64,000 nucleotides of DNA from NCBI RefSeq assembly GCF_001279005.1, contig NZ_LGCN01000210.1:277944-341943 (forward strand), in the 5' to 3' direction. Shown here in pieces: positions 1-6,097 of the stretch; the first letter of the stretch is position 1; the number at the start of each line of letters is the position of its first letter. The notes under the pieces are model-generated. The model had not been told where the DNA came from and ran no database searches. It worked only from the letters and a program-made list of their open reading frames with translations. This stretch comes from Streptomyces caelestis. GTDB taxonomy: Bacteria; Actinomycetota; Actinomycetes; Streptomycetales; Streptomycetaceae. Position numbers and translations under genes: made by a program.

Positions 1-1762
1 GGTCCAGGGTGACGTTCACCCAGTCCTCGTTGCGCGACAGCGGCGTCTCGGGCTGGGTGTCGGCGTCGTCCGGGTCGAAGGTGCGCGGGCTGTAGTCCTC
101 GACCTCGGGCAGCTCCAGCGGCAGCATCGACTCGGGCAGGGCGTGGGCGACGCCGTCCTCGTCGTAGACGATCGGGAAGGGCTCGCCCCAGTAGCGCTGC
201 CGGCTGAACAGCCAGTCGCGCAGGCGGAAGTTGACGGTGCCCGCGCCGCGGCCCTCGCGCTCCAGCCACTCGGTGACGCGGGCCTTGGCCTCGACGACGG
301 ACAGGCCGTCCAGGGAGATCTCGTCGTTCGACGAGTTGATGATCTTCGCGTCGTACGAGGCGAAGGCGTTCTCCCAGGTGGAGGTGTCCGTGCCGCGGCC
401 GTCGGTCGGCTCGACGATGCAGTGGACCGGCAGCTCGAAGGCGCGCGCGAACTCGAAGTCGCGCTGGTCGCCCGCCGGGACGGCCATGATCGCGCCGGTG
501 CCGTAGCCCATCAGGACGTAGTCGGCGATGAAGACGGGGACCTGCTCGCCGTTGACCGGGTTGGTGGCGTACGCGCCGATGAAGACGCCGGTCTTGTCCT
601 TGGCCTCGGCCTGCCGCTCGACGTCGGACTTGGCGGCGGCCTGCGCGCGGTAGGCGGCGACGGCCTCGGTGGGCGTGGCGTGCCCGCCGGTCCACACCTC
701 GTGGGTGCCCTCGGGCCAGGCGTCCGGGGTGAACTTCTCCACCAGCGGGTGCTCGGGCGCCAGCACCATGTAGGTGGCGCCGAACAGGGTGTCGGGGCGG
801 GTGGTGAAGACGGTGATGTTCTCGCCGTCGATGGGGAAGTCGACGCGGGCGCCCTCGGAGCGGCCGATCCAGTTGCGCTGCTGCAGCTTGATGGCCTCGG
901 GCCAGTCCAGGCCGTCCAGGTCGTCAAGGAGGCGGTCGGCATAAGCCGTGATCCGCATGTTCCACTGGCGCAGCCTGGCCTTGAAGACGGGGAAGTTGCC
1001 GCGCTCGGAGCGGCCCTCGGCGGTGACCTCCTCGTTGGCCAGCACGGTGCCCAGACCGGGGCACCAGTTGACCGGCGCGTCGGAGGCGTAGGCCAGGCGG
1101 TACTCGCCCAGGACGTCGGCGCGCTCCGCCTCGGTCAGCTCGTTCCAGGAGCGGCCGCCGGGGACGCCGCGCTCACCGGACTCGAACAGCTCGACCAGCT
1201 CGGCGATCGGGCGGGCCCGCTCCGCCTCCTCGTCGTACCAGGAGTTGAAGATCTGCAGGAAGATCCACTGGGTCCACTTGTAGTACTCCGGGTCGATCGT
1301 GGCGAACGACCGGCGCTTGTCGTGACCCAGGCCCAGCCGGCGCAGCTGGGACTTCATGTTCTCCATGTTGGCCTCGGTCGACACGCGCGGGTGCGTGCCG
1401 GTCTGCACGGCGTACTGCTCGGCGGGCAGGCCGAAGGCGTCGAAGCCCAGGGTGTGCAGGACGTTGTGTCCGGTCATGCGCTGGAAGCGGGCGAAGACGT
1501 CGGTGGCGATGTAGCCCAGCGGGTGTCCGACGTGCAGTCCCGCACCGGAGGGGTACGGGAACATGTCCATGATGAACTTCTTGGGCCTGGCGGCGGTCTC
1601 CGGATCGCCCGACAGGTCGCCGCTCGGGTTCGGCGCGGCGTAGGTGCCCTCGGCGTCCCAGAAGTCCTGCCAGCGTGCCTCGATCTCGGCCGCCAGGGCG
1701 GCCGTGTAGCGGTGCGGCGCTGCCTCCGCGGCTGCGGTGGCAGCGGGGTTCGTCTCGCTCAT
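1..1762 (-). CDS. leuS: Leucyl-tRNA synthetase, N-terminal part (cut by window edge)
   Basis: Charges tRNA-Leu with leucine in the cytoplasm. About 587 N-terminal residues are visible; the C-terminal part with the KMSKS loop, the anticodon-binding domain and the stop lie beyond the left edge. The class I signature HVGH is near residue 60, followed by the connective-peptide editing region with [11 protein letters not shown]. The ATG at 1762 (MSETNP) is preceded by a GAGG ribosome site a few bases upstream and matches the usual start of Streptomyces LeuRS. Upstream are a short Leu-rich leader peptide and a terminator hairpin, so expression is probably controlled by leucyl-tRNA charging through attenuation. 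The family assignment is certain; only the 3' end is missing. Confidence 0.97.
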
Positions 1763-1815
1763 GATCCTCAATGCTCCATCGATCGTCTCTGCCTGCTGCT
1801 GCGACTTCCTGGAAA

Positions 1816-1842
1816 TGAAAAATCCCCTCGCACAGGAGGGGA
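1816..1842 (-). terminator. Leader terminator (attenuator) ahead of leuS
   Basis: Read on the minus strand, a 7-bp GC-rich stem (TCCCCTC/GAGGGGA, arms 1823-1829 and 1836-1842) with a 6-base loop is followed directly by ATTTTTCATTT. This is a canonical intrinsic terminator. It lies between the leader peptide and leuS rather than after a gene, which is why I read it as an attenuator. A second, longer nested hairpin (1856-1881, CCGACC/GGTCGG outer arms) lies between the peptide stop and the terminator and may be the competing or pausing structure. Confidence 0.8.
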
Positions 1843-1887
1843 CGCCGCGCCGATTCCGACCGGCCGGTCACCGGCGGTCGGGACTGA

Positions 1888-1926
1888 TCAGCGCGGCTCG
1901 CTAAGCAGAAGGCGTACGGCACGCAT
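1888..1926 (-). CDS. Leucine-rich leader peptide of leuS (12 aa)
   Basis: A 13-codon frame encodes MRAVRLLLSEPR and stops 45 bases before the attenuator hairpin. Residues 6-8 are three consecutive Leu codons, CTT CTG CTT; CTT is rare in Streptomyces and suits a ribosome-stalling control codon. There is no ribosome site, but a TACCCT -10-like hexamer ends 6 bases before the ATG, consistent with a leaderless transcript starting at the ATG, as reported for some actinobacterial attenuator peptides. Predicted role: ribosome stalling on Leu codons when charged tRNA-Leu is scarce, favouring read-through into leuS. Function is inferred from architecture. Confidence 0.78.
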   Translation of the reverse strand: MRAVRLLLSEPR

Positions 1927-1932
1927 GGCGCC

Positions 1933-1938
1933 AGGGTA
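1933..1938 (-). promoter_or_regulatory. -10-like element for the leuS leader
   Basis: TACCCT on the minus strand fits the TANNNT -10 consensus and ends 6 bases before the leader ATG at 1926. No clear -35 is visible. The same arrangement recurs upstream of the genes starting at 12786, 60722 and 63767. Confidence 0.5.
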
Positions 1939-5216: not shown

Positions 5217-5221
5217 TTCTG

Positions 5222-5294
5222 TGGAGCTAAGGAGAATTGAACTCCTGACCTCCTGCATGCCATGCAGGCGCTCTACCAACTGAGCTATAGCCCC
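5222..5294 (-). tRNA. tRNA-Ala (GGC), copy 1
   Basis: 73 nt. The minus strand begins GGGGCTATAGCTCAG and folds as a standard cloverleaf: 7-bp acceptor GGGGCTA/TAGCTCC, D-arm GCTC/GAGC, anticodon stem CCTGC/GCAGG with loop ATGGCAT (anticodon GGC), and T-arm AGGAG/CTCCT with loop TTCAATT. CCA is not encoded. Identical in all 73 positions to the copy at 6025-6097. Confidence 0.96.
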
Positions 5295-6017: not shown

Positions 6018-6024
6018 CGTCATG

Positions 6025-6097
6025 TGGAGCTAAGGAGAATTGAACTCCTGACCTCCTGCATGCCATGCAGGCGCTCTACCAACTGAGCTATAGCCCC
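6025..6097 (-). tRNA. tRNA-Ala (GGC), copy 2
   Basis: 73 nt, identical to the gene at 5222-5294, with anticodon GGC in loop ATGGCAT and no encoded CCA. Flanking bases differ. A TAAAGT -10-like hexamer lies at 6159-6164 and a strong terminator directly downstream. Confidence 0.96.

What the first reader, a model, noticed from the sequence alone, without database searches (positions are those of the whole stretch)
1763..1938. Leucine attenuator controlling leuS
The sequence directly shows a 12-codon peptide MRAVRLLLSEPR with three consecutive Leu codons (two of them rare CTT), a nested hairpin (1856-1881), and then an intrinsic terminator with a T-run (1816-1842), all upstream of leuS. This is classical ribosome-mediated attenuation of an aminoacyl-tRNA synthetase. 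In actinobacteria such systems are best known for trp, leuA and ilv genes. The leader lacks a ribosome site and looks leaderless.
Basis: partly seen in the sequence, partly recalled or inferred. Interest (0 to 1): 0.75.

Follow-up and report, generated by a model that had tools for sequence, protein, structure and literature searches.

The report
Known leucine attenuator before leuS
A tiny leucine-rich coding sequence and a transcription stop signal sit before the gene for leucyl-tRNA synthetase; this switch has already been described in Streptomyces, but here it is traced into many other branches of the actinomycetes and its working parts are narrowed down.

Summary
On the minus strand upstream of leuS there is a 12-codon ORF (1926-1888, MRAVRLLLSEPR, Leu codons CTT CTG CTT) whose ATG lies 6 nt after a TACCCT box, then a 10-bp stem P1 and an intrinsic terminator T. 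It is not new: Seliverstov et al. 2005 predicted leuS attenuators in S. coelicolor and S. avermitilis, and the 2021 S. lividans RNA-seq reannotation lists the identical, leaderless peptide.

Added here: a match to the leader in 149 of 150 genomes of the genus and the leader in all 40 order-level loci taken by their LeuS protein; model hits in 135 of 296 class genomes, some of them leuA or leuC leaders or chance. The constant control codon is a rare CTT three codons before CCG (152 of 156 as scored, CTC in 4). P1 shows compensatory changes, and its 3' end abuts T (gap 0-3 nt in 149 of 152).

A conserved, mutually exclusive antiterminator could not be shown. A ribosome held at CTT would cover the base of P1: the likely switch. 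No leucine-response data were found.

The parts
1933..1938 (-). -10-like box TACCCT of the leader promoter, 6 nt before the leader ATG
   Evidence: read; GGTACCCT-like boxes at this spacing recur in relatives; S. lividans RNA-seq calls the transcript leaderless
1888..1926 (-). leader ORF leuL, MRAVRLLLSEPR*, no ribosome binding site seen
   Evidence: identical peptide LeuL2 of S. lividans TK24 in PMC8079986
1903..1911 (-). three Leu codons CTT CTG CTT; the last (1905-1903) is the near-invariant control codon
   Evidence: codon three before CCG scored as CTT in 152 and CTC in 4 of 156 loci
1888..1897 (-). P1 5' strand GCCGCGCUGA (overlaps Pro-Arg-stop)
   Evidence: pairs in 1458 of 1490 cells over 149 loci, 24 cells changed on both sides; 98.7% of cells in alignment A1
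1844..1853 (-). P1 3' strand UCGGCGCGGC
   Evidence: P1 loop is 8 to 102 nt over 108 loci, 13 nt or less in 16
1818..1843 (-). intrinsic terminator T: CCCCUC-CUGUGC-GAGGGG (1841-1824) plus weak outer pairs and U-run 1822-1818
   Evidence: abuts P1
1786..1797 (-). post-terminator element AGCAGGCAGAGA that can pair with the Leu-codon stretch (candidate P0, weak)
   Evidence: changes together with codons 9-10 in several lineages of the genus; in this very genome not significant (z -0.78, p 0.193); not supported class-wide
1..1762 (-). leuS, leucyl-tRNA synthetase, 587 codons seen, cut by the window edge

Best explanation
This is a leucine-dependent, ribosome-mediated transcription attenuator of leuS. 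Shown: a leader ORF right behind a -10-like box, stem P1, terminator T and leuS in this order in the loci read from the order and from 22 further families of the class. Inferred: a 70S ribosome starts at the 5' AUG. When Leu-tRNA is charged it finishes and leaves, P1 forms and T forms directly beside it, so transcription stops before leuS. When Leu-tRNA is short, the ribosome waits with the rare CTT in its A site. P1 begins 8 nt after the first base of CTT, so the leading edge covers about the first five bases of P1. The base of P1 next to T cannot close, and T forms late or badly, either because the freed P1 3' strand captures part of T or because T loses its stacked partner. RNA polymerase then reads into leuS. 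Which of these two last steps applies is open.
For: A match to the leader in 149 of 150 genomes of the genus and the leader in 40 of 40 loci fetched by LeuS protein from the family and order, one of them from the same genus. Model R1 hits 135 of 296 class genomes, 64 of 114 genera, an upper count since some hits are leuA or leuC leaders or chance. Of 66 exact matches of one 21-nt leader pattern in named genomes, 60 precede a leuS: 55 by signature and 5 read and confirmed by family model. Control codon CTT 152 and CTC 4 of 156 as scored; in two of the four the script took a CCG too early and P1's own register has CTT. The two codons before it vary and need not be Leu. CTT is 1.3% of Leu codons in the window. 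P1 has both-sided changes at five of ten pairs in eight labels. P1 and T abut: gap 0, 1, 2 or 3 nt in 108, 15, 24, 2 of 152 folded loci. Covering five nt of P1 lowers the predicted advantage of T from a median of 14.0 to 9.2 kcal/mol. Leaderless transcription by RNA-seq in S. lividans with the identical peptide (passages read).
Against: No experiment on leucine response was found. T stays favoured in most loci and states: probability 0.9 or more in all four ribosome states in 25 of 32 loci; losing it costs less than 2 kcal/mol in only 4 of 149 loci with CTT in the A site. With the stop codon in the A site P1 is covered too and T is weaker still (median 5.5), so the model needs fast release before T is made. 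The footprint of 12-13 nt ahead of the A-site codon is recalled, not measured here. In the related S. coelicolor ilvB leader codon changes had no effect, and those in the leuA leader had some effect not consistent with classical attenuation (PMC1262725, passages). On the smaller order-level alignment the shuffle control for P1 covariation was not striking (68 of 500 shuffles reach it).
Confidence: 0.8

Rival explanations
1. Strictly classical three-helix attenuator: P1 is the anti-antiterminator (1:2), its 3' strand GCGYGG pairs with CCUGNGC of the terminator loop as antiterminator (2:3), and T is 3:4. Stalling frees strand 2.
For: In transcripts cut before the T 3' arm the 2:3 pairs are absent when P1 is free (0 of 149 loci with 3 or more) and appear when its first five nt are covered (100 of 149) or ten (104 of 149). 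In the genus itself the real loop does slightly better than shuffled (mean z -0.53, 68 loci). Seliverstov et al. drew an antiterminator hairpin for two Streptomyces (legend read, figure not held).
Against: Across 39 labels real terminator loops pair with P1 no better than shuffled loops: mean z 0.08, standard error 0.12. Losing T still costs a median 9.2 kcal/mol.
Confidence: 0.35
2. Stacked tandem hairpins without a specific antiterminator: P1 stacked on T makes one strong stop signal, and the ribosome itself opens P1.
For: The gap between the helices stays 0-3 nt in 149 of 152 loci while T changes its length and the P1 loop ranges from 8 to 102 nt. An upstream hairpin is reported as required for L4-mediated attenuation of the E. 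coli S10 operon (title seen in a reference list).
Against: The folding model used does not score coaxial stacking (recalled), and nothing measured shows that T alone is weak; the median predicted T energy is -14.9 kcal/mol.
Confidence: 0.35
3. Translational control through a long-range stem P0: the Leu codons pair with an element just upstream of the leuS ribosome site, like the base stem of the leuA LEU element.
For: In the genus the element GGCAGA is conserved and changes with codons 9-10 in several lineages; rows of the order mean z -1.06, 18 of 56 rows under 0.05, rows not independent; swapping leaders between loci worsens pairing, mean -0.75 over 21 genera; genus rows -1.53 over 13.
Against: Per genus the Leu segment (-0.59) is no better than the start of the leader (-0.63); 16 other families -0.36, standard error 0.23, only 48 of 149 loci usable. 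It cannot explain the terminator.
Confidence: 0.12
4. The leader is a fixed, unregulated feature: a leaderless ORF and a leaky terminator that set a constant leuS level.
For: No regulation data were found in the papers searched.
Against: The near-invariant rare CTT in fixed register with P1 has no obvious use in a fixed device.
Confidence: 0.08

Closest known systems
leuS attenuators of Streptomyces (Seliverstov et al. 2005, PMC1262725; LeuL2 of S. lividans TK24, PMC8079986)
   Same: Same gene, same position, leader peptide identical letter for letter to LeuL2, leaderless, hairpin plus U stretch.
   Different: Reported for some Streptomyces only in the passages read; the fixed CTT, the abutting P1-T geometry and the spread through the class were not described there. 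A 2010 paper on aminoacyl-tRNA operons (Lopatovskaya et al.) was seen only as a reference.
LEU element upstream of leuA (LeuL1)
   Same: Leader with a Leu run, leaderless in S. lividans; shares CTTAGC followed shortly by GCCGCG, and the leuS model R1 also picks up leuA leaders.
   Different: The S. lividans leuA leader lacks a typical Rho-independent terminator; a pseudoknot and pairing of Leu codons with the leuA ribosome site were proposed.
trp/leu/phe leader-peptide attenuators of enterobacteria (recalled)
   Same: Cognate codons, leader ORF, terminator.
   Different: Here the ORF is leaderless, one codon is nearly invariant, and a conserved 2:3 antiterminator is not shown.

Membership tests
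ribosome-mediated (leader-peptide) transcription attenuator | short ORF with codons of the regulated amino acid between promoter and gene | tested here: met
   chance 19 of 5000 shuffles for an LLL ORF
ribosome-mediated (leader-peptide) transcription attenuator | intrinsic terminator between ORF and gene | tested here: met
   among the 66 named matches my terminator pattern fitted 51
ribosome-mediated (leader-peptide) transcription attenuator | helix at the end of the ORF whose formation depends on ribosome position | tested here: inconclusive
   the helix P1 is supported by covariation and lies at a fixed distance from CTT; its dependence on the ribosome is inferred from a recalled footprint
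ribosome-mediated (leader-peptide) transcription attenuator | antiterminator mutually exclusive with the terminator | tested here: inconclusive
   candidate pairs form only when P1 is covered, but no selection on the loop across labels and T favoured in most loci
ribosome-mediated (leader-peptide) transcription attenuator | readthrough rises on starvation for the cognate amino acid | not testable with these tools
   no such data in the papers searched
T-box riboswitch | match to a T-box covariance model | tested here: not met
   Rfam scan of the window: two tRNAs only; 1700-2160 at E up to 5: six weak hits, all far below their cut-offs, none a T-box
LEU element (leuA type) | Leu codon run pairs with the ribosome site region of the gene | tested here: inconclusive
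   suggestive in the genus, not supported class-wide
LEU element (leuA type) | conserved pseudoknot | not tested
   no pseudoknot search was run

The most novel reading that the evidence does not exclude
A leuS attenuator spread through much of the class Actinomycetes that has no dedicated antiterminator: a ribosome starting leaderless and waiting at one rare CUU codon, in fixed register, unzips the base of a helix stacked end to end on the terminator, so that the ribosome itself is the antiterminator.
Probability: 0.3. Interest if true: 0.55.

Novelty: already known. Interest (0 to 1): 0.35.

Why it matters
The element itself is in print. What may matter is the scale and the sharpness: one rare codon kept at one place, and two helices kept edge to edge, in relatives far beyond Streptomyces. 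That makes the old question of how actinobacterial leaders sense amino acids directly testable, since the codon changes reported for the ilvB and leuA leaders of S. coelicolor gave results that do not fit classical attenuation (PMC1262725, passages).

Tried and rejected
Chance: rejected. T-box or other Rfam family: no match. The inner hairpin as a working part: rejected, 16 of 108 relatives have no room for it. A second model hit about 45 kb from leuS in the same genome, first thought to be valS: it is a leuA leader. Selection of the terminator loop to pair with P1: not seen across labels. P0 as a general feature: not supported outside the genus; other leader segments scored alike per genus. 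In one search, 7 of 32 loci have T below 0.9 in at least one state, L087 in all four.

Literature: searches, 36 of an open-licence library; two searches returned nothing. Passages only were seen of PMC1262725 (plus its Leucine section), PMC8079986, PMC8269248 (S. clavuligerus 3'-end mapping; leuS not named in the passages) and PMC11109978 (leuS does not occur). Lopatovskaya et al. 2010 was seen only as a reference, so an earlier report of wider spread cannot be excluded.

Rows dropped: L001, L018 and L021 as duplicates or near-duplicates. Of 60 class-level stretches fetched, 49 were kept as leuS leaders; 5 precede leuA (L142, L144, L146, L148, L200; L146 judged by likeness, the rest by model), 1 precedes leuC (L196), 1 was a chance hit (L151), and 4 gave no leader ORF by my filter (L186, L194, L197, L201). 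Of the 49, 33 show the LeuS signature inside the stretch; in 16 it was not found there. One of 157 loci did not fit the CCG register (L177); 4 of 156 were not folded and 3 gave no gap; 7 of 156 were not placed. Of the four scored CTC, L152 and L199 have CTT in P1's own register, L156 and L179 have CTC. Bias: genus loci came by likeness to the leader and class loci by a model trained on CTT leaders, which favours CTT; the 40 order-level loci came by LeuS protein and all 40 carry CTT there.

Full report
What is there. On the minus strand, leuS begins at 1762 (NCBIfam TIGR00396, 571.8 bits against a cut-off of 548.4). Between 1926 and 1763 lie a 12-codon ORF, a stem P1, a terminator T with a U-run, a short tail and the leuS start. 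The ORF reads MRAVRLLLSEPR and starts 6 nt after TACCCT, with no ribosome site seen.

Is it known. Yes. Seliverstov et al. 2005 (PMC1262725; passages and the Leucine section read) report classical candidate attenuators upstream of leuS in S. avermitilis and S. coelicolor. The S. lividans TK24 reannotation (PMC8079986; passages read) lists LeuL2 with the identical peptide, transcribed leaderless by RNA-seq and followed by a hairpin and a uridine stretch. Neither reports a leucine response for leuS in what was read. No Rfam family matched it.

How far it reaches. A BLAST search with the 164-nt leader gave a match at E 0.001 or better in 149 of 150 genomes of the genus, the window's own included; the miss is a 79% complete genome. 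All 71 loci read from that search, two of them the window's own, show the leader ORF. In the family and order, LeuS protein was found in 121 of 121 and 99 of 99 genomes. From these, 40 loci were fetched, 39 of them from 20 other genera of three families, chosen by genus without looking at the leader; all 40 carry it. A covariance model from 47 sequences hit 135 of 296 genomes of the class, in 64 of 114 genera, with stricter filters that lose weak matches. This is an upper count for leuS, because some hits precede leuA or leuC or are chance: of 60 stretches fetched, 49 were leuS leaders, 5 leuA, 1 leuC, 1 chance, and 4 gave no ORF by my filter. The 49 include 48 in the common register, from 22 families outside the order. 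To attach names, one 21-nt pattern was scanned in named genomes: 66 matches in 65 records, 60 of them before a leuS (55 by signature, 5 by reading and family model), including Jiangella, Kribbella, Frankia, Amycolatopsis, Kutzneria, Kineosporia, Georgenia and Isoptericola. Four lay in stretches too short to tell, and two (L204, L234) show neither leader ORF nor LeuS. My terminator pattern fitted 51 of the 66 and my start-codon rule failed in some that do precede leuS.

What is conserved. Over 156 of 157 loci in one register, the codon three before CCG was scored CTT in 152 and CTC in 4; two of the four are a misplaced CCG, and in P1's own register they have CTT. The two codons before it are mostly CTG, CTC or CTT and sometimes not Leu; by label, 40 of 43 hold CTT at the control place. 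CTT makes up 16 of 1222 Leu codons in gene-like frames of the window. Genus and class loci were found by likeness to CTT-bearing leaders, so part of this is bias; the 40 order-level loci were not, and all have it. P1 pairs in 1458 of 1490 cells over 149 loci, with 24 cells changed on both sides, at five of ten pairs, in families f5, f19, f22, f28, f39, f40, f46 and genus g6. It is kept where the ORF ends before P1 or runs past it. On the smaller order-level alignment the shuffle control was not striking: 68 of 500 shuffles reached the observed covariation score. The P1 3' end and the T core are 2 nt apart in 101 of 108 loci. With full predicted stems the gap is 0, 1, 2 or 3 nt in 108, 15, 24 and 2 of 152 folded loci, undefined in 3. 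The P1 loop ranges from 8 to 102 nt, so the inner hairpin is not needed.

How it may work. T has a folding probability of 0.9 or more in all four ribosome positions tested in 25 of 32 loci; 7 fall short in at least one, one of them (L087) in all. Losing T costs a median of 14.0 kcal/mol with P1 free, 9.2 with five nt of P1 covered and 5.5 with ten covered, over 149 loci; it costs under 2 in 0, 4 and 21 of them. In transcripts cut before the T 3' arm, three or more pairs between the P1 3' strand and the T region are expected in 0 of 149 loci with P1 free and in 100 of 149 when five nt are covered. This would be a classical antiterminator, but real loops do no better than shuffled ones (mean z 0.08, standard error 0.12, 39 labels; -0.53 in the genus). 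So P1 is the part that would answer to ribosome position, and how its loss reaches T is open between a weak 2:3 hairpin and loss of a stacked helix. The footprint used, about 12-13 nt ahead of the A-site codon, is recalled.

A possible long-range stem. Within the genus an element before the leuS ribosome site can pair with the Leu codons and codons 9-10, and changes with them in several lineages. It resembles the base stem proposed for the leuA LEU element. In the window's own genome it is not significant, and per genus and per family the signal fades, so it is kept only as a weak lead.

Verdict. A real, already described attenuator; wider and sharper than the passages read here describe; mechanism supported by comparison, not by experiment.

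Noticed in passing
L142 (G000:C209:233000-234500), L144, L146, L148, L200: leuA leaders (e.g. MRFGLLLLSCRGEGLQ) are picked up by the leuS leader model; several share CTTAGC followed shortly by GCCGCG, which hints at common origin or common constraint.
   Followed up: partly
L196 (G485, family f38): A leader with a Leu run, MRTVLLLLSGRDETSF, sits before leuC (3-isopropylmalate dehydratase large subunit); a leucine leader on another leu gene.
   Followed up: partly
L243 567-587 and 3380-3400; L214 and L253: Actinopolymorpha pittospori and A. rutila carry two leuS genes, each with its own leader.
   Followed up: partly
L211, L227: Bins labelled Chloroflexi and Acidobacteria hold an actinobacterial-looking leader before leuS; mislabelled bins or transfer, not resolved.
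   Followed up: no
window 5221-5294 and 6024-6097, minus strand: Two tRNA-Ala(GGC) genes about 800 nt apart.
   Followed up: no
L143, L145, L161, L174, L175, L199: In some families the leader ORF stops at TAG before P1, yet P1-like complementarity is kept, so P1 is an RNA constraint and not a by-product of the Pro-Arg codons.
   Followed up: partly
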